From Gemmataceae bacterium (GTDB taxonomy: Bacteria; Planctomycetota; Planctomycetia; Gemmatales; Gemmataceae): 64,000 bases of DNA. The notes under the pieces were generated by a model, which did not search any database, was not told the origin of the DNA, and worked only from the letters and a program-made list of their open reading frames with translations. Every line of letters starts with the position of its first letter. Position 1 is the stretch's first letter. The stretch is taken from assembly GCA_901538445.1 (NCBI GenBank), contig LR594586.1, positions 434,001 to 498,000 on the forward strand, written 5' to 3'. The position numbers and the translations under genes were made by a program. This document shows, piece after piece, positions 14,672-34,898 of this stretch.

Positions 14672-14715
14672 AAGGCACCCCGCGGGCGTTGTCGCCGGCG
14701 GGGTGCCTTGTTGTT
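14672..14715 (+). terminator. Intrinsic terminator after the ParB-like gene
   Basis: A 12-bp perfect stem (14672-14683 with 14698-14709), a 14-nt loop and a T-rich tail (TTGTTGTTTGG). A TATAAA patch (about 14652-14659) lies just before it, so some transcripts could start here towards 14730. Confidence 0.7.
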
Positions 14716-14729
14716 TGGTAGGGGGCCGT

Positions 14730-15023
14730 ATGGTCGCGCGAAAGGACTCGTTCGGTGGCGTGCCCATAGCCCAGGTCCGGGCGGCCCTGGCGGTCACCCG
14801 GTTGCACCCCGACGCCGGCGGCGTCGTCTGGCCGGTGGCCGTGTGGGACCGGCTCTGGGTCCGGCTCACCCCCACACAGCAGCACGTCGTCTACCTGCGG
14901 TTCGTCGTCGGCCTCACCTCGACCGCCGCGGCCGAGCAGCTCGGCCTGAGCCGGGGGTCCGTGGACGGGGCCGTAGCGCGTGCCCTGGAGCGGATCCGCG
15001 ACGTGGTGCCCGCGTCCAACTGA
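14730..15023 (+). CDS. Sigma-region-4-like HTH protein
   Basis: 97 residues from the ATG at 14730. The C-terminal half 'LTPTQQHVVYLRFVVGLTSTAAAEQLGLSRGSVDGAVARALERIRDVV' is a textbook sigma70 region 4 (the helix-turn-helix that reads -35 boxes), but no region 2 precedes it. The N-terminal about 45 residues are not recognised. It is the last rightward gene and could be a late-gene activator or region-4 partner of the gp55-like protein encoded at 17449-17841. It is convergent with the leftward late genes, the two stop codons being 1 bp apart. Confidence 0.7.
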   Translation: MVARKDSFGGVPIAQVRAALAVTRLHPDAGGVVWPVAVWDRLWVRLTPTQQHVVYLRFVVGLTSTAAAEQLGLSRGSVDGAVARALERIRDVVPASN

Positions 15024-15024
15024 C

Positions 15025-15423
15025 TCACTTCTTGGCCAGCGCCTCCTTCTCCCGCACCTGGTCGTCGTGGTAGTAGCCGTTGCTCGCCTCCTGCACCAGG
15101 AAGCGCTCCGTCGCCTCCTCCTGAGTGAGGTGCGGGTACCGCCGTGCGGCGATCGCCGCGAGGATCCGCAACGACAGGTCCGCGAGCGGGCGCTTCACGG
15201 GTGCCGGCGGAGCGGTGTCCACCGGGGGCGGGCCGGCCGGCACCGCCGGGCTCGCGGGCGTGGCCGGGGCCGCGGGCTTCGCCCGCTTCAGCAGCCACGC
15301 CAACACCGGGGCCGCGATCGGTGACAGCACCGGGAAGATCTTCGGCAGCACGAACAGCGCTCCGACGGCGACCAGGACCACAACGGGCCGGTCGAGCAGG
15401 GGCAGGATCTGGGACGGGTCCAT
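15025..15423 (-). CDS. Small membrane protein, holin-like
   Basis: 132 residues from an ATG at 15423 that overlaps the stop of the preceding protease gene by one base. Residues about 9-45 (RPVVVLVAVGALFVLPKIFPVLSPIAAPVLAWLL) form one long or two short membrane segments; a proline/alanine linker and a charged C-terminal domain (about 75-132) follow. Size, topology and last place in the late gene cluster fit a class II-like holin, but the family is not recognised. Tight coupling to the secreted protease suggests a joint role. Confidence 0.6.
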   Translation of the reverse strand: MDPSQILPLLDRPVVVLVAVGALFVLPKIFPVLSPIAAPVLAWLLKRAKPAAPATPASPAVPAGPPPVDTAPPAPVKRPLADLSLRILAAIAARRYPHLTQEEATERFLVQEASNGYYHDDQVREKEALAKK

Positions 15424-17408
15424 TACTTCGACTCCTTGCGGTTGCGTAGGAACAGGATCACGAGCAGTGCGGCGATCGCGAGCCACGGCGTGCGGGCGGG
15501 CTCGGCCGGCGGGGTCGCCGGCGTCTCGTTGGGTGCGTCCGCGGGCTTCGCCGGCGAGGCCGGATCCGCGGGCTTCGCTGGCGGGGTCGGTGGCTTGGGG
15601 TCGAACACCTGGAGCAGGAGCGCGACGAGCAGCTCGACGTCAACGCGGTCGAGCTTGCCCACGACGGCCCCGCCCTTCGGGGCCGGCTCCTGGAGCTGCA
15701 CGGCCGATGCGACGCGCTCCTTCGCGAGCCACGAGTCGCGTGCGTACACGCGGGCGTGGAGTCGGTCCCGGAACCGTGCGACGCGCGGGTCCGCGAGGAC
15801 CTGGTCGAGGACCTGCTGCTCGGCCGCGCCGCCGAGGACCGACAGGTGGTAGCAGTCGCTGTCATCGACCAGCGCCCCGCCCATCGTCTCGTAGGTCTCG
15901 CCGGGTAGCGTCTCGTGACCGCGGACCCAGTACCGCTGCTTCCCGCCGATGGTGAGGCCGTCCAGCTCGTCCGTGTCGATGCCGTAGTTGGGCACCGCGT
16001 GCTTCGGCACGGCCTCGGCCGCCTTCACCGGGGCGAGCGCCCCGAACTGTTCGCCGGCCTGGTCCCGCACCCACGCCTTCACGGCGTCGAGGCTGTTCGC
16101 GAACTGGTGCTTCCCGTCCCCGCCCCACGCGACCCCGACCAGCTCGCCGGAGTCACTGAACAGGCCGCTCCCGCTGTCGCCCTGCTGAGACGCGATCGTG
16201 GTGCGGAGCGTCTTCGGCCCGACGTAGTTCCCCTGCTCGACCGTCGCGCCGCTCTTGAGCTTCGCCGGCGAGCCCGGGGTCACGCCCCCGAACCCCCATT
16301 GGTACACGGCCGCACCGACCGGGGCCGGCGTGGCGGCGATCGGGGCGGCGACCGCGGCGACGTCGATCACGAGCAACGCCAGGTCCGGTGTGTCGGAACT
16401 CATGACGCTACTCGCCAGGTGACGGGCCGCGTGCTTCTTGGTCCCGATCCACACCGACACGGGCCGGGTGCCGTCGGGCACGACGTGCGAGTTGGTCAGT
16501 ACCAGCGACCGGCCGCGCTCGCTCGCGATGACGGTGCCGGACCCGTACTCGGTGATCCCGTCCCCGGCGTCCCGCTGCACCTGGATTGCGCAGGCCGATC
16601 GGCCAACGCGCGGGGTGCCAACTGCGGCCGGCCGCGGCTGCACGACGACGGGTGCCGCACCGGCGTTCGGGCAGCGGCCGTTGGGGCAGCTCGGGAACGT
16701 GTACTGGTGCTCCTCGGGCCGCCAGACCCCGAACTCGTCCAGGGTGACGATCACCGGAGCGGGCGGCGCGGGCGGGTCGAGCAGGACCACTGCCCACCCG
16801 CCGCCGCGGGCCTTCCACCGCGCGATCAGCTCGGCCCGCGTCATCCACACGAACACGCCGGGCCGGTTGTTGTCCACGATGCACGCCCACTGGCTGTCCA
16901 GGTGAACCAGACACACCATGTGATCGACCAGGCCGCCGTAGAAGTCGTCCCCACCGGCGTAGGTGATGGCGATCGGGCGACGGGTGCGCATCGCCATGTC
17001 GAGGAACCGCTCGTCCCCGCCGGTGTGCTGGACGTACTGCGGCTCTCGCACTCCCTTCTCGCGGCAGAACTGGGCGATCATGGCCGCGAGCTTCGCGGGC
17101 GACCCGCCCCCGGGCTTGTTCGTCATCCACTGTTGGAAGCCCTTGAGCGCCGGCACGCACTGCGACAGCGCGTCCATCTCGACCGCGGTGTAGACGCACA
17201 GGCCCGCCCCAGTCCCCGGCACTCCTCGCTTCCCGATGCCCCCGGTGTTCCGCATGTGGATCGCGGCGGGCATGTCGGTGGCGGCGCGGACGCCGGTGGG
17301 GGACACCGGAGTCTTGGTCGGGGTGAAGGCCTCGACGGACGGCACGGCGGCGATCGCCGCCGCGAGGGTGAGGTGTGCGACCAGGGCGGCCGCGGTGAAG
17401 AGTCGCAA
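15423..17408 (-). CDS. Secreted, membrane-anchored protein with cysteine-peptidase-like and trypsin-like domains
   Basis: 661 residues from TTG at 17408 (AGGA lies 8-11 nt ahead). Order: signal peptide (1-28); a C39/papain-like domain (about 50-210) with Cys71 (GLCVYTA), His163 (VDHMVC) and Asp180/Asn181 (VDNN); a trypsin-like domain (about 270-455) with His308 (TNSHVV), Asp342 (TPDLAL) and Ser412 (QGDSGSG); a small alpha-beta domain (about 490-560); a Pro/Ala linker (603-640); a C-terminal hydrophobic anchor (641-654) and a basic tail. It would face outside the cytoplasmic membrane. It has its own late-type promoter box at 17434. Possible roles are lysis, envelope remodelling or maturation of tail proteins. 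Confidence 0.85.
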   Translation of the reverse strand: MRLFTAAALVAHLTLAAAIAAVPSVEAFTPTKTPVSPTGVRAATDMPAAIHMRNTGGIGKRGVPGTGAGLCVYTAVEMDALSQCVPALKGFQQWMTNKPGGGSPAKLAAMIAQFCREKGVREPQYVQHTGGDERFLDMAMRTRRPIAITYAGGDDFYGGLVDHMVCLVHLDSQWACIVDNNRPGVFVWMTRAELIARWKARGGGWAVVLLDPPAPPAPVIVTLDEFGVWRPEEHQYTFPSCPNGRCPNAGAAPVVVQPRPAAVGTPRVGRSACAIQVQRDAGDGITEYGSGTVIASERGRSLVLTNSHVVPDGTRPVSVWIGTKKHAARHLASSVMSSDTPDLALLVIDVAAVAAPIAATPAPVGAAVYQWGFGGVTPGSPAKLKSGATVEQGNYVGPKTLRTTIASQQGDSGSGLFSDSGELVGVAWGGDGKHQFANSLDAVKAWVRDQAGEQFGALAPVKAAEAVPKHAVPNYGIDTDELDGLTIGGKQRYWVRGHETLPGETYETMGGALVDDSDCYHLSVLGGAAEQQVLDQVLADPRVARFRDRLHARVYARDSWLAKERVASAVQLQEPAPKGGAVVGKLDRVDVELLVALLLQVFDPKPPTPPAKPADPASPAKPADAPNETPATPPAEPARTPWLAIAALLVILFLRNRKESK

Positions 17409-17433
17409 GGCGGATCCTCGTGAGGGTGTGCCG

Positions 17434-17441
17434 CTATGTAG
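17434..17441 (-). promoter_or_regulatory. Late promoter box CTACATAG (protease-holin unit)
   Basis: On the minus strand GGCTACATAGC lies 25 nt before the TTG start of the protease gene, with a ribosome-binding site in between. Confidence 0.65.
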
Positions 17442-17448
17442 CCGGCCC

Positions 17449-17841
17449 TCACTCTCGCTCGTCCCGCTCGCGCCGGGGCGGCAGCTCCCGGCCCGCCTCG
17501 ACCAGCTCGGCCGCGTAGGTCTCGAACCGGCGGCGGTCGCCGGTCGCCTTCTCCCGGAGCTTCTGCCCGAACCGGATGGCGCAGGTCGTGAAGTAGTTGA
17601 AGACGTGCTTCTGCGCGTCGGCCTTTTCGAGGGGACGTTGCATGAGGTGCAACGTCACCTCCTGCACGAAGTCGTCCTTGTCGCTGGTGAACCGGTACCG
17701 GTCCCACACGCCGCCGGCGATCGCCATGAGCGCGCGGGCCAACTCGGGCGAGACGGTGCCGGTGGCCTGGTGGTCGAGGACGAGCGCGCGGAGCGCGGCG
17801 ACGTCGATGTACGACGTCGCCCGGGTGGGGCGATCGGGCAC
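17449..17841 (-). CDS. T4 gp55-like late sigma factor
   Basis: 130 residues from a GTG at 17841. The order of blocks follows T4 gp55 as I remember it: 'YIDVAALRALVLDHQ' (gp55: YVNNKELLQAIIDWK), then 'LARALMAIAGGVWDRYRFTSDKDDFVQE' (gp55: IGLAIMLIAEGLSKRFNF), then 'VFNYFTTCAIRFGQKLREKATGDRR' (gp55: [22 protein letters not shown]). This is a sigma region 2 without regions 3 and 4. gp55 directs RNA polymerase to late promoters that have only a -10 element (TATAAATA). The gene carries one of the late boxes itself (17880), so positive feedback is possible. Confidence 0.65.
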   Translation of the reverse strand: MPDRPTRATSYIDVAALRALVLDHQATGTVSPELARALMAIAGGVWDRYRFTSDKDDFVQEVTLHLMQRPLEKADAQKHVFNYFTTCAIRFGQKLREKATGDRRRFETYAAELVEAGRELPPRRERDERE

Positions 17842-17879
17842 GGTGGGTGTCCGTGGGTCGGGGTGTCCTGCGTGTGCTG

Positions 17880-17887
17880 CTATCTAG
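17880..17887 (-). promoter_or_regulatory. Late promoter box CTAGATAG (sigma gene)
   Basis: On the minus strand GGACTAGATAGC lies 38 nt before the GTG start of the gp55-like gene. Confidence 0.55.
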
Positions 17888-17930: not shown

Positions 17931-18389
17931 TCAGGCCGAGTACGCCGCCACCGCGTCGGCCTCTTCCTGCGACAGCACCCCGTCCGCGACCGCCTTCGCC
18001 AGCATCCCGCCGAGCAGCGGGTCCGTGAGGTAGATCGCGCTGAACGCGGTGAGCACCTCGCGGAACACCGCCTCCCACCCGGCCCGGACCTCGGCACTCA
18101 GGTACGGCAGGCGGAACCGGGCGGGGATGAGCCGCCGCTGGAACTCGACCGGGGTGATGACGCTCCCGGCCGGGGGCTTCAGCACGGCCAGTTCCGCCGC
18201 CGCCACGGCGAGCTGCTGCTGTGCCGCCGCGAGGTCGGCCTGGGCCGCGGACAGGGTCGCTTCCAGGCCACTGGCGTAGGCGGCCGACTGTGCGACCGCG
18301 GCCGCGGTGCGGGCCGGCTCGCCGTCGATCGTGGCCTGTGCCGCGGCGAGGGCGGCCTGCAGCTCGGCGATCTGTTCTTCGGGGGTCAT
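17931..18389 (-). CDS. Coiled-coil protein next to tail fibre (possible fibre chaperone)
   Basis: 152 residues; its ATG overlaps the stop of the tail fibre gene (ATGA). The first about 80 residues are an Ala/Gln/Glu-rich coiled coil ([19 protein letters not shown]), followed by a globular C-terminal part ([20 protein letters not shown] ... [28 protein letters not shown]). Position directly after a fibre gene is usual for fibre assembly chaperones or fibre tip proteins. No family is recognised with confidence. Confidence 0.6.
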
Positions 18390-21300
18390 GTGGGCACGAT
18401 CTCCGCGCTTGAGAACCAGTGGAAGGCGCAGCCGCCCGAGGCCGGGGAGACCGAGCCGCCGGCCCCGTTCTGCACCGCGAACCCGGTGGGGCCGCTGTTG
18501 GCCACGGTCGCGGTGCCCAGGTTGGTGTTCGCGTAGTCGCTGAACGTGTTGGGCGATCCGGCGTAGTTGTAGGTGCCCAGCACGGCCGGCGTGGCGCGCT
18601 TGGCGACCGCGTACCGCACGCTCCCGATCACCGCCCCGTTCGCGATGCTCGACGGGGTCGGGAACGCGGCCATGCCGACCGCCGTGGACGCGGTCCCCGG
18701 GGCCACGCCCGGCGTGTAGCTCGACTCGCAGTACCGCTGGCACAGTTCGTCGTCGGCCGGGTGCGGTGCCCACGTCGGCACCTGGGAACCGCGGACGAGT
18801 TGGGCCTGGCCGAGGTAGATGCTTGCGCCGTTCGCCAGCGACTCAACGTATGCGATCACCCACAGCCCGACGCACGAACTCGACGGGGTTCCGGTCGCGG
18901 TCACCGGCGTGGCCGTGCTGGTGTTCAGTGCCGCGGAGCCGGTCGCCACGCTCGCGTAACTCGTGGCCTGGAACGTGGGCACGCCCGAGGACCAGGAGGC
19001 GACCGGCTTGGTCGGCGCGTCGGCGCTGCCGGTCCACTCGCGGACCGCGACCCTGAGCGTCGGCGTGCCGGTCGAGGCGATCGCCCGGAACCCGGCGGCG
19101 ATTGCGGTTGCCCGGAGCGACGCGGCGGCCAGCCCGTTCGGCCCGTTGGCCTCGATGAACTGCCCCAGTGCGAACGACTTGGCGGACCCCGAGTTGTTCT
19201 TCACCTGGAGGTAGCTCGGGCCGAGTTCGGCGAACGACGCGGGCGGGGACGGGTCCCCCTGCGTCCAGTTGCGGAACTGGATGTCGGTGGAGCCGTTGTC
19301 CTGCAAGTACCAGTTGGTCGGCCCGTGGACCCCGGTGGAGGCGTAGGTGGAGAGGGTGGTGCGGGCCTGCCGCGGGAGCCGGCGGAAGTCGCCGTTCACC
19401 AGCAGGTTGAGCTTGTCCACGGTCACCGCGTTGGGGCCGGTGACCGCGTCGAAAGCCTTGATGACCTTGTTGGTCACCCGGAACGGCTGCATGTTGTTGT
19501 GAGCGGCACCGCCGCCCGTCGCATCAACATTGGGCTGCTGCACATTTCTATTGCCGCCGCCCGCCCACGTTGCCGTACCCGTGCCGGTGGTCGGGTTAAA
19601 ACCGATCGCATTAGTGGAGTGGCTGTGCGATGGCATTTCCCCAGTGGTCAGTTGGTGGGTCTCGGCCCCACCGCTCGCGGCAAGCGTCCTTGCCGTGAGT
19701 CCTGAGCCGGTGCCGCTGCCGATCGCCGTGCGGCCCCGCAGGTCGGGCAAGTTAAACGTGGTCGAGCCGTCCCCGCTGCCCCAAGCCGTCCCGATGACCG
19801 CGTACAGCGCCGAGTAGGTCGAGCGCGACACGGCCGAGCCATCGCACTCCAGATACCCGGCCGGGGGAGTCGCGGAGCCGAAGTCCAGGATGCTCCCGAC
19901 AGGCACGGTCCCCGCCGCCGCCCAGCTCACCGAGGTGCCGTCGGTGGTCAGGAACTCGCCCGCGTGGCCCGTTTGGGTCGGGACCAGCGCGTTGATCGCG
20001 TCGGCCGCCGTGGTCTCGCCGGTGCCGCCGTTGGCGACCGGGAGCGTGCCGGTGACGTCCGCGGCCGGGATCGTGGTGGTCGCGGAGACGCTTGAGCCGT
20101 TGCCCTTCAGGTACCCGGTGAGGTCCGTGGCGGTTGCCGCGGTGACCTCGTTCGGACCGGGAGCACCGTCGGCCCCGTCCGCGCCGTCAGCACCGGCCGG
20201 GCCTGTCGGCCCAGTCGCGCCCGTCGGCCCGGTCGGGCCGGGGTCGCCCTGCGGCCCCGCAGGGCCGGTGGCACCCGTGGCACCCGCCGGCCCAGTCGCG
20301 CCCGTCGGCCCGGTCGGGCCGGGGTCGCCCTGCGGCCCCGCAGGGCCGGTGGCACCCGTGGCACCCGCCGGCCCAGTCGCGCCCGTCGGCCCGGTCGGGC
20401 CGGGGTCGCCCTGCGGCCCCGCAGGGCCGGTGGCACCCGCGGGGCCGGTCGCGCCCGTCGCCCCGCCGGGGATGGTGAAGTCGAGAACGGCCGCCGTGCT
20501 GGTGCCGACGTTCGTCACGGTCGCCGAGCTGCCGGCCGCCCCGGTCGTGACGGTGCCGATGCTCACCGTGGCGGCCCCGTCCGCGCCGGCGGGTCCGGTG
20601 GGTCCGGCGGGTCCCACGCCAGGGAGCAGGTAGGTCGCGTAGGTGAGTTCGTGCCCGAGCGACGTGCTGCGGTAGTAGATGTTCGCGTTGCCGGACCCCA
20701 GGCTACCGTGGAGCTGTAACACCAAGGTGGCCGCAGAGGGGGCCTCGTACAGCACGCTGAACGTGACCGAGTCCTGGCGGTAGTACGTCTGCGGGGTGGT
20801 CGGGCCGACGTACTGGTCCGCGACCGCGCCGAGGGTCGTGGCCCCGTCCGTGTTGTTGCCGACCGCCTGCGCGTTGGTCTGGTCGTAGAGCCGCCACCGC
20901 CAGAACGGTTGGTCCGGCACGGTGTCGTACACCGCGTAGTACATCGTGACGACGACGTTGAGCAGGTACGTCCCGGCCTGCGGGAGGTCCATCACGAGTT
21001 GGGTGTCCTGCCACCCGGACCCCGCGTAGAGGTCTTCGTAGTCCACCGCGGGCGGCTCGGAGCGACCGCACACCGGCGTCCCGCCCCCGCCGGAGGTGCC
21101 TCCGCCGGCGACCGTGCGGAACCGGGCGAGGCCGTCCTCGGTGTCGCCGGTGCGGGTGCAGAGGTAGCGAGCGTCCTCGACCAGCTCGGCCGAGCCCGCC
21201 GCGGCGACCAGGACCCCGGCGTCGAGGTCCTCGAACTCGCCGGCGACGTCGAGCGACACCACGCCCGGGTACCACCCGCCGTCGGCCGGGCCGGTGACCC

Positions 21301-21424
21301 TCACCCAGGTGACGCCCCGGGCCGCGGGCGCGGGCGTGGACGGGCGGCCGACCGTCCCGCCGTCGGCGAGGATCTGCTTGAGCTGCTGCGCGGTGCGCTC
21401 GGAGAGTGCGTAGCTGCGGGCCAT
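18386..21424 (-). CDS. Tail fibre with collagen-like repeats and phage tail collar domain
   Basis: 1012 residues. The N-terminal about 260 residues (beta-rich, probably the tail-attaching part) lead into Gly-X-Y collagen-like stretches at about 270-290 and 325-425 ([20 protein letters not shown] units). A tail collar domain follows (about 505-620; [23 protein letters not shown] and NLPDLRGR). The C-terminal 380 residues look like a beta-sandwich, probably the receptor-binding part. Collagen repeats imply a trimeric rod. The gene is downstream of a tail protein gene with an 10-bp gap and is coupled to a coiled-coil protein. It should determine host attachment. Confidence 0.9.
20210..20452. repeat. 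Three 81-bp tandem repeats in the fibre gene
   Basis: Copies start at 20210, 20291 and 20372, each coding for nine Gly-X-Y triplets (27 residues). The first copies are almost identical in DNA, including silent positions, while the last ends differently. This points to recent expansion by slippage or recombination. Confidence 0.9.
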
Positions 21425-25178: not shown

Positions 25179-25204
25179 CGCTCGCTCTCGTGTGCCGTGT
25201 GTGG

Positions 25205-25212
25205 CTATCTAC
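25205..25212 (-). promoter_or_regulatory. Late promoter box GTAGATAG (tail unit)
   Basis: On the minus strand GGTAGATAGCC lies 26 nt before the major tail protein ATG and overlaps the stop of the gp10-like gene. Confidence 0.6.
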
Positions 25213-33557: not shown

Positions 33558-33561
33558 GCCG

Positions 33562-33569
33562 CTATGTAG
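33562..33569 (-). promoter_or_regulatory. Late promoter box CTACATAG (tail terminator)
   Basis: On the minus strand CGCTACATAGCGGC is followed directly by the ATG at 33557, 4 nt past the box. Confidence 0.65.
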
Positions 33570-33678: not shown

Positions 33679-33939
33679 GTGCCAGTCCCGAAGAAGAAGC
33701 AGACGGTGCGCGGGGCGAAGCGGATGAGGGAACAGGGCTACAAGCAAGTGGCGCTCTGGCTCGGGCCGGTCGAGGCGGGCGTGATCGCGGCCGCCGCCAA
33801 ACGGCTGGGTATGCCGGTGGCGACGTGGATCCGGGAACAAGCCTTCGCCGCGGCACAGGCGGCCGAGGCGGAACGGAGGAAGCTAACGAAAGTGGCCGCG
33901 GCGAAGGCCGAGGCCGAAAGACGAAAGGGACAGCTCTAA
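33679..33939 (+). CDS. Small basic protein, possible RHH-like DNA-binding protein
   Basis: 86 residues from a GTG at 33679 with GGAGG 5 nt upstream; this avoids starting within the 28-bp inverted repeat. 'YKQVALWLGPVEAGVIAAAAKRLGMPVATWIREQAF' resembles an RHH core (strand, helix, helix), followed by a highly charged helix (AAQAAEAERRKLTKVAAAKAEAERRKG). Its stop overlaps the integrase stop on the other strand. It may control integrase or the nearby inverted repeat. Confidence 0.6.
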   Translation: MPVPKKKQTVRGAKRMREQGYKQVALWLGPVEAGVIAAAAKRLGMPVATWIREQAFAAAQAAEAERRKLTKVAAAKAEAERRKGQL

Positions 33940-34898
33940 GCTTGCCTCCCGCCGTCCGGTCGCGATCGCGGCCGGTCCGCCACGCGGTCGATCGCCGCGA
34001 CCAGGTCGTCGCCGGCGAGGTGCTGATAGCGGTTCGTGGTCGTCGTGTTCGAGTGCCCCATGATCTCGGCCAACGTCTTGTCCTTGACCCCGCGCCGGGT
34101 CGCGTTGGTCGCACCGGTGTGGCGCATGGTGTAGCACACGACGCGCTCCACGCCATCTGGGTCCAGCCCTGCCCTTTCCCGCGCTCCTCGCATCTGGCAC
34201 CGAAGCGCGTTGTAGGTCCATTGCTTCCCGTCCCGATCCAACCAGACTGGATCGTTCGGCCCGGGGCACCCCCGGCGCTCCCAGATGTTGCGGAGCATCC
34301 TTAGCGCCGGCTTGTCGAGCGGGATCTGCCGCACCTTCACACCGTCACGCCGGCGCTTCTTTCCCTTGAATTTCACGAGGGTTATGAGCCGACGTTCCCA
34401 CTGGATCTGACCCCAGAGCAGCCCGCGGATCTCGCCCGGCCGCGCGATGCTGCGGGCGAGTACGAAGAGGAACCGGCGGAGCAGTCGGCTGGACGCGAGG
34501 TAAAGCCGTACCATCTCTGTCCGGGTCAGGACGCGCTGCCGCTCGCCGCACGGAGGGGGCTTGAGCTTCTTGAACGGGTCCTTCTGGAGCAGCCCGACGT
34601 CGTCGTCGCACGCCCAACGGTACACGGCCCGGAGGACTCGAACGAATGCGTTCGAGAACTCGACCGACACCAGGTGGGCGGCCCGCAGCTCGGCCGCGGG
34701 GAAGTCCCCGACCGCGGCGTCGAGCTTCGCGAGCTGGCTCTTGTACCACGCGAGCGTAGTGGGTTCGGTCTCGCCCAGCTTGACGCGGACTAGTAGGGCG
34801 GATTCGAAGCTGCGGGAGAGGTCGCGTACTCGGAACATTCCCGGATTGAAACGCCCGCCGCCCGCGTTGTCATCAGACGCACGTTGAGGTATCGTCAT
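33936..34898 (-). CDS. Tyrosine recombinase / phage integrase
   Basis: 320 residues. Core-binding domain about 20-100, catalytic domain 110-295 with Arg153 (ARPGEIRGL), Lys near 176 (KFKGKKRR), Arg259 (YTMRHTG), His282 (MGHSN) and nucleophile Tyr291 (TNRYQHL). The usual HxxR is YxxR here, a tolerated variant. It stands 120 bp from attR, the normal position for the enzyme that joined this phage to tRNA-Pro. Its upstream DNA has one box of the late type (34976). Confidence 0.93.
   Translation of the reverse strand: MTIPQRASDDNAGGGRFNPGMFRVRDLSRSFESALLVRVKLGETEPTTLAWYKSQLAKLDAAVGDFPAAELRAAHLVSVEFSNAFVRVLRAVYRWACDDDVGLLQKDPFKKLKPPPCGERQRVLTRTEMVRLYLASSRLLRRFLFVLARSIARPGEIRGLLWGQIQWERRLITLVKFKGKKRRRDGVKVRQIPLDKPALRMLRNIWERRGCPGPNDPVWLDRDGKQWTYNALRCQMRGARERAGLDPDGVERVVCYTMRHTGATNATRRGVKDKTLAEIMGHSNTTTTNRYQHLAGDDLVAAIDRVADRPRSRPDGGRQA

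What the first reader, a model, noticed from the sequence alone, without database searches (positions are those of the whole stretch)
15423..17408. Phage-encoded, membrane-anchored protein with two different protease domains
A signal peptide, a C39/papain-like domain (Cys71, His163, Asp180/Asn181), a trypsin-like domain (His308, Asp342, Ser412), a third small domain, a Pro-rich stalk and a C-terminal anchor occur in one 661-residue protein. I do not know this architecture in a phage. It would be displayed on the outside of the cytoplasmic membrane during late infection, since its own late-type promoter box precedes it.
Basis: partly seen in the sequence, partly recalled or inferred. Interest (0 to 1): 0.75.

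Follow-up and report, generated by a model that had tools for sequence, protein, structure and literature searches.

The report
Planctomycete phage lysis protein with trypsin
A prophage gene encodes an exported, membrane-tethered papain-like enzyme that is probably the phage's cell-wall-cutting lysis enzyme; it belongs to an undescribed family found in more than 100 viral sequences, and only this copy has a second, trypsin-type protease built into it.

Summary
The gene is real. It lies on the minus strand (15423-17408), inside a complete tailed prophage. It encodes a signal peptide, a papain/C39-like domain (AF2 pLDDT 94; Cys71, His163, Asp179 and Asn181 invariant in 56 relatives), a trypsin-like domain with an intact triad, a thioredoxin-like domain without CxxC, a Pro-rich stalk and a C-terminal membrane helix.

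The base architecture is not unique. The C39-like domain occurs in at least 116 viral contigs, nearly always fused to or directly beside the Trx-like partner, with no match in Pfam, NCBIfam, PHROGs or 50,697 sequenced phages. The collinear prophage of a sister species has the same gene without trypsin, so trypsin is an insertion seen only here.

Best reading: this is the endolysin of an undescribed lysis cassette. It follows the tail fibre; a small membrane protein follows directly in 54/93 loci versus 49/623 control genes (p~1e-27); no other endolysin was found in this prophage; its closest named viral structural matches include endolysins. Phage-encoded secreted trypsins also occur in such cassettes elsewhere, once beside a relative of the same membrane protein. 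Cell-wall cleavage is inferred, not shown. "Two proteases, phage, membrane-anchored" holds; the lysis role replaces surface display.

The parts
15423..17408 (-). the gene, 661 aa, TTG start, TAA stop
17331..17408 (-). signal peptide (residues 1-26, predicted cleavage VEA|FTP, same site in the G008 orthologue)
   Evidence: hydropathy, alignment; no SignalP available
16743..17318 (-). papain/C39-like domain (residues 31-222); Cys71, His163, Asp179, Asn181
16089..16583 (-). trypsin-like domain (residues ~276-440); His308, Asp342, Ser412; inserted in the linker relative to the G008 orthologue
15597..15866 (-). thioredoxin-like domain without CxxC (residues ~515-604)
15486..15593 (-). Pro/Ala-rich stalk
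   Evidence: sequence
15432..15485 (-). C-terminal transmembrane helix (residues 642-659)
   Evidence: AF2 helix 188-205 of the domain model; hydropathy
15025..15423 (-). 132-aa membrane protein with one strong TM helix near the N-terminus, overlapping the stop by TAATG; holin/releasin-like by position and topology
17426..17441 (-). CTANATAGCNGCACAC box upstream of the gene
17872..17887 (-). second box, upstream of the 130-aa gene
17449..17840 (-). 130-aa gene between tail fibre and lysis gene (70% identical to the same-position gene in G008); function unknown
18386..21424 (-). collagen/collar tail fibre gene, conserved upstream neighbour
33936..34898 (-). integrase at the right end of the prophage

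Best explanation
It is the lysis enzyme of this prophage: a Sec-exported, membrane-tethered papain/C39-like endopeptidase. Made late with the tail genes, it crosses the inner membrane, loses its signal peptide and stays held by its C-terminal helix, with the thioredoxin-like domain and Pro-rich stalk as spacer or partner domain. The small membrane protein encoded directly after it (start and stop overlap) acts as a holin or releasin that times the attack. The C39-like domain then cuts peptide bonds of the peptidoglycan. The trypsin domain inserted in the linker of this copy adds a second activity: cutting envelope proteins that bind outer membrane to wall, or cutting its own stalk to free the C39 domain. 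Shown here: export and anchor signals, folds, intact catalytic residues, family-wide pairing, gene order, absence of another recognised endolysin. Inferred: peptidoglycan as substrate, role of the small membrane protein, role of trypsin.
For: (1) N-domain model of 94 pLDDT. Its best named viral structural matches include Lysin A of a Mycobacterium phage (E 2.3e-4) and an endolysin of Gordonia phage OneUp (7.6e-4). PDB matches include the viral lytic enzyme PeiR (Z 12.2), C39 peptidases (Z ~11.5) and the B. anthracis C39-like peptidase 3erv (Z 12.2), the same kind of structure that the N5 domain of mycobacteriophage endolysins resembles (PMC3314691). (2) Cys-His-Asp/Asn invariant in 56 diverse relatives. 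(3) Position after the tail fibre. A small TM ORF follows directly in 54/93 systems against 49/623 control ORFs, p=1e-27; these neighbours fall in several sequence classes, and the weak lysis-category hits among them are all to holins. (4) No amidase, lysozyme, M15, M23, SLT, CHAP or NlpC family among 128 ORFs of the prophage; 0/32 related viral records reach the cut-off for Amidase_2, Phage_lysozyme or SLT or hit M15_4. (5) The capsid protease role is taken by a separate S78 protease. (6) Trypsin: the nearest relative (45%) is a secreted trypsin gene beside a papain-like peptidase gene in G537, and viral contig L264 has a secreted trypsin gene directly after a 2-TM protein homologous (E 3e-11) to the membrane neighbour of this family.
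Against: No activity data. The papain fold also serves toxins, phytochelatin synthase and leader peptidases, and such proteins score as high as or higher than the lytic enzyme. About 40% of testable loci show no small TM ORF by this crude test. Holin calls are weak (best E 0.024). Only about half of the loci have a strong C-terminal TM helix (45/89). An intact, non-prophage copy in the host chromosome (L040) is odd for a lethal enzyme. Pfam lists for the whole viral contigs were truncated at 25 families. The role of trypsin rests on one gene plus two context cases.
Confidence: 0.62

Rival explanations
1. A membrane-displayed protease pair that alters the host surface during infection (receptor removal, superinfection exclusion, or killing of rivals).
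For: Exported and anchored, two peptidase folds; C39-like toxins of the CdiA type are the top structural matches; chromosomal copies exist outside prophages.
Against: Fixed place in the late region after the tail fibre with a small membrane protein next to it; no other endolysin in the prophage.
Confidence: 0.17
2. A processing peptidase that matures a phage or host secreted protein (as C39 peptidases cut Gly-Gly leaders), with the Trx-like domain as substrate binder.
For: C39 fold matches to PCAT1 and ComA peptidase domains; fixed partnership with the Trx-like domain.
Against: No ABC transporter or Gly-Gly peptide gene was seen beside it; C39 leader peptidases work in the cytoplasm (general knowledge), this one is exported; capsid maturation has its own S78 protease.
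Confidence: 0.12
3. A transpeptidase or transferase of papain fold (phytochelatin-synthase-like) acting on glutathione-like or wall peptides rather than a hydrolase.
For: Phytochelatin synthase Alr0975 is among the best matches (Z 12.7).
Against: Shared fold only; no sequence relation.
Confidence: 0.05

Closest known systems
Mycobacteriophage Lysin A with N5 (C39-like) domain (PMC3314691) and Gordonia phage OneUp endolysin
   Same: papain/C39-like peptidase fold, phage-encoded; a Mycobacterium phage Lysin A and the OneUp endolysin are structural matches of the N-domain model
   Different: they are endolysins built with other catalytic and wall-binding domains (PMC3314691); this one has a signal peptide, a Trx-like domain, a C-terminal anchor and no sequence match
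PeiR/PeiW/PeiP pseudomurein endoisopeptidases of methanogen viruses (PMC6189367, PMC4592898)
   Same: papain-like lytic enzyme, Z 12.2
   Different: pseudomurein substrate, different accessory domains
SAR endolysins and the phage Mu releasin gp25 (PMC9239132)
   Same: membrane-held exported endolysin plus a separate small N-terminal-TM protein needed for release (works-like analogy)
   Different: SAR anchor is N-terminal; here the anchor is C-terminal and the N-terminus looks cleavable; the 132-aa neighbour has no DUF2730 match
Trypsin_2 secreted proteases (PF13365), nearest in G537 (L255)
   Same: full-length trypsin domain, GDSGSG, 45% identity
   Different: there a separate gene; here fused in a linker

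Membership tests
Papain/C39-like cysteine peptidase (fold level) | papain-like fold | tested here: met
   AF2 pLDDT 93.7; Z 11-13.7 to papain-like and C39 chains over 130-166 residues
Papain/C39-like cysteine peptidase (fold level) | Cys-His-Asp/Asn catalytic residues | tested here: met
   Cys71, His163, Asp179, Asn181 invariant in 56 relatives
Papain/C39-like cysteine peptidase (fold level) | oxyanion Gln a few residues before the Cys | tested here: inconclusive
   no Gln there; Asn54 is invariant but its role was not tested (no coordinates on hand)
Pfam/NCBIfam C39 families | profile match over cut-off | tested here: not met
   no Pfam hit in the N-domain at E<0.1; no relevant NCBIfam hit in 56 members
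Trypsin_2 (PF13365) | profile over gathering score and His-Asp-Ser triad | tested here: met
   53.3 bits against 27.6, full length; H308, D342, S412
Thioredoxin fold | beta-alpha-beta / beta-beta-alpha core | tested here: met
   Z up to 8.8 over 79-85 residues, many thioredoxins; Foldseek E only 4e-3
Redox-active thioredoxin | CxxC motif | tested here: not met
   a single Cys (519) in the domain
Phage endolysin | peptidoglycan hydrolysis needed for lysis | not testable with these tools
   needs enzyme assay and gene removal
Phage endolysin | only wall-hydrolase candidate of the phage | tested here: met
   128 prophage ORFs against Pfam
Phage endolysin | next to a holin | tested here: inconclusive
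   small TM ORF next in 54/93 against 49/623 controls; holin profile hits weak
SAR endolysin | uncleaved N-terminal signal anchor | tested here: inconclusive
   a cleavable VEA|F site and a separate C-terminal helix argue against it
Mu releasin (DUF2730) for the 132-aa neighbour | DUF2730 profile match | tested here: not met
   no Pfam hit

The most novel reading that the evidence does not exclude
Planctomycete phages use an unrecognised lysis system: a Sec-exported, membrane-tethered papain-like endolysin with an obligatory thioredoxin-like partner and a small releasing membrane protein. In some phages a secreted trypsin-like protease supplies the third, outer-layer step that spanins do elsewhere; in this prophage the trypsin has fused into the endolysin itself.
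Probability: 0.3. Interest if true: 0.78.

Novelty: new variant of a known kind. Interest (0 to 1): 0.6.

Why it matters
How phages lyse planctomycetes appears little studied: the one literature search made here for planctomycete phages and prophages returned no paper on it. This family gives a concrete, testable candidate present in over 100 viral contigs, including isolate prophages, with no match in the family libraries searched. It shows a modular layout (exported papain-like enzyme, Trx-like tether, small membrane protein) that can gain a trypsin domain, and suggests that proteases may help open the planctomycete envelope.

Tried and rejected
Single-protein pattern scan of viral contigs and tblastn against 50,697 phages found nothing; the profile route was needed. 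Alignment A1 was too diverse for pattern search. Prohead-protease role rejected: a separate S78 is present. Peptidase_C39_2 (PF13529) occurs once in the genome, elsewhere. Trypsin was sought by phmmer in all fetched loci of the family and found in none. Whole-contig Pfam scans of six viral contigs gave no wall hydrolase among the 25 families shown, but the lists were cut, so they are weak negatives. A sequence link between this family and the papain-like/Trx-like pair of L261/L267-L269 was tested and not found (hhalign probability below 2).

Full report
What is there. The window is 434001-498000 of contig C1 of a 7.86 Mb genome whose relatives are planctomycetes, judging by the named records that carry the gene (Gemmataceae, Fimbriiglobus, Planctomycetaceae). 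The gene is on the minus strand, 15423-17408. It lies in a complete tailed prophage: integrase, small and large terminase, portal, S78 prohead protease, HK97-type capsid, connector and tail completion proteins, tape measure and a collagen/collar tail fibre.

Domains. Residues 31-222 fold with pLDDT 93.7 into a papain/C39-like domain, with Cys71, His163, Asp179 and Asn181 invariant in 56 relatives. Residues 276-440 are a full trypsin domain with an intact triad. Residues ~515-604 form a thioredoxin-like fold without CxxC. A Pro/Ala stalk and a C-terminal helix follow. The N-terminus is a typical signal peptide whose VEA|FTP end resembles that of the orthologue in G008 (AEA|FTP).

Family. A profile search found 76 and then 40 further viral contigs (116 distinct by contig name), but only 18 loci in a collection of 84,980 species genomes, nearly all planctomycete. 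Of 117 distinct N-domain sequences, 49 are fused to the Trx-like domain, 56 have it in the next gene and 12 have neither, several of them at contig ends. So the two parts very likely work together. No Pfam, PHROG or relevant NCBIfam profile and no PDB sequence matches the N-domain, and no sequenced phage of 50,697 matches. The C-terminal membrane helix is strong in about half of the loci.

The trypsin insert. The prophage in G008 (L041) is collinear with this one: tape measure 52%, the next gene 54%, the 130-aa gene 70%, then the same gene at 51-57% in the N-domain and 39-44% in the Trx-like part, but with no trypsin. The trypsin domain therefore sits in the linker of an otherwise standard family member. 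It was found in no other family locus. Its nearest relative by far (45%) is a separate secreted trypsin gene in G537, which lies beside a gene for another papain-like peptidase and near tail-type genes by my reading. That papain-like gene has relatives in three viral contigs, each next to a small exported protein that reads as thioredoxin-like to me; neither is related by sequence to this family. In viral contig L264 a secreted trypsin-like gene follows directly a two-helix protein that is homologous (E 3e-11) to the membrane neighbour of this family in some 29 loci. Secreted trypsins thus recur in this type of cassette.

Function. A small membrane protein follows the system directly in 54 of 93 testable loci against 49 of 623 other long ORFs in the same contigs (Fisher p = 1e-27; related phages are not independent, so the p-value overstates). 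In the window its start overlaps the stop (TAATG). These small proteins fall in several sequence classes; the few lysis-category hits are to holins and weak. No known wall hydrolase was found among 128 ORFs of the prophage, nor Amidase_2, Phage_lysozyme over cut-off, M15_4 or SLT in 32 viral records of the family. The viral structures closest to the N-domain include Lysin A and endolysins, and the PDB list includes the viral lytic enzyme PeiR (PMC6189367). The N5 domain of mycobacteriophage endolysins was likewise matched to a B. anthracis C39-like peptidase (PMC3314691), and our model matches such a structure (3erv, Z 12.2). Hence the lysis reading. The arrangement of a membrane-held exported enzyme with a separate small TM protein recalls SAR endolysins and the Mu releasin (PMC9239132) as an analogy only.

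Transcription. A 16-base box lies about 18 bases before the start and again before the 130-aa gene. These are the only two exact copies in the genome, and two weaker copies precede other late genes.

Limits. Cleavage of peptidoglycan, the holin/releasin role and the role of trypsin are inferences. The host chromosome also carries an intact related gene with its small TM partner among ordinary genes (L040), at the same locus with broken frames in two sister species. This suggests an old, decaying or domesticated copy and is the main oddity.

Noticed in passing
L040 9186-11140 (own genome C2 ~772 kb); L045; L056: Intact family gene plus its small TM partner outside any prophage, beside a 2-hydroxyacid dehydrogenase; same locus in two sister species with disrupted frames. 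Possible domesticated or decaying lysis cassette.
   Followed up: partly
window 17426-17441, 17872-17887, 25197-25211, 33561-33569: Repeated CTANATAGCNGCACAC box upstream of late genes, absent elsewhere in the genome as an exact match; candidate phage-specific promoter.
   Followed up: partly
window 17449-17840: 130-aa protein between tail fibre and lysis gene, with its own box, conserved in G008 (70%); reads like a sigma region 2 (DDFVQEV...) but no Pfam match; could drive the box.
   Followed up: no
window 14703-15023: Small sigma-70 region 4 protein convergent with the lysis genes; also present in the G008 prophage.
   Followed up: no
L261 7342-10741; L267 1480-3185; L268 5138-6843; L269 5117-6801: A second, unrelated papain-like peptidase gene next to a putative Trx-like exported protein in planctomycete-type phages; in L261 followed by a secreted trypsin. 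Possibly an analogous lysis cassette.
   Followed up: partly
L264 5194-7023: Secreted trypsin-like gene directly after a two-helix membrane protein of the family that neighbours the C39-like lysis genes; a coiled-coil TM protein upstream resembles a spanin.
   Followed up: partly
G000:C2 608-618 kb (L039): A second prophage-type tail region in the same genome (tape measure of another family, collar fibre 67% identical to the window's) with another fused family member.
   Followed up: partly
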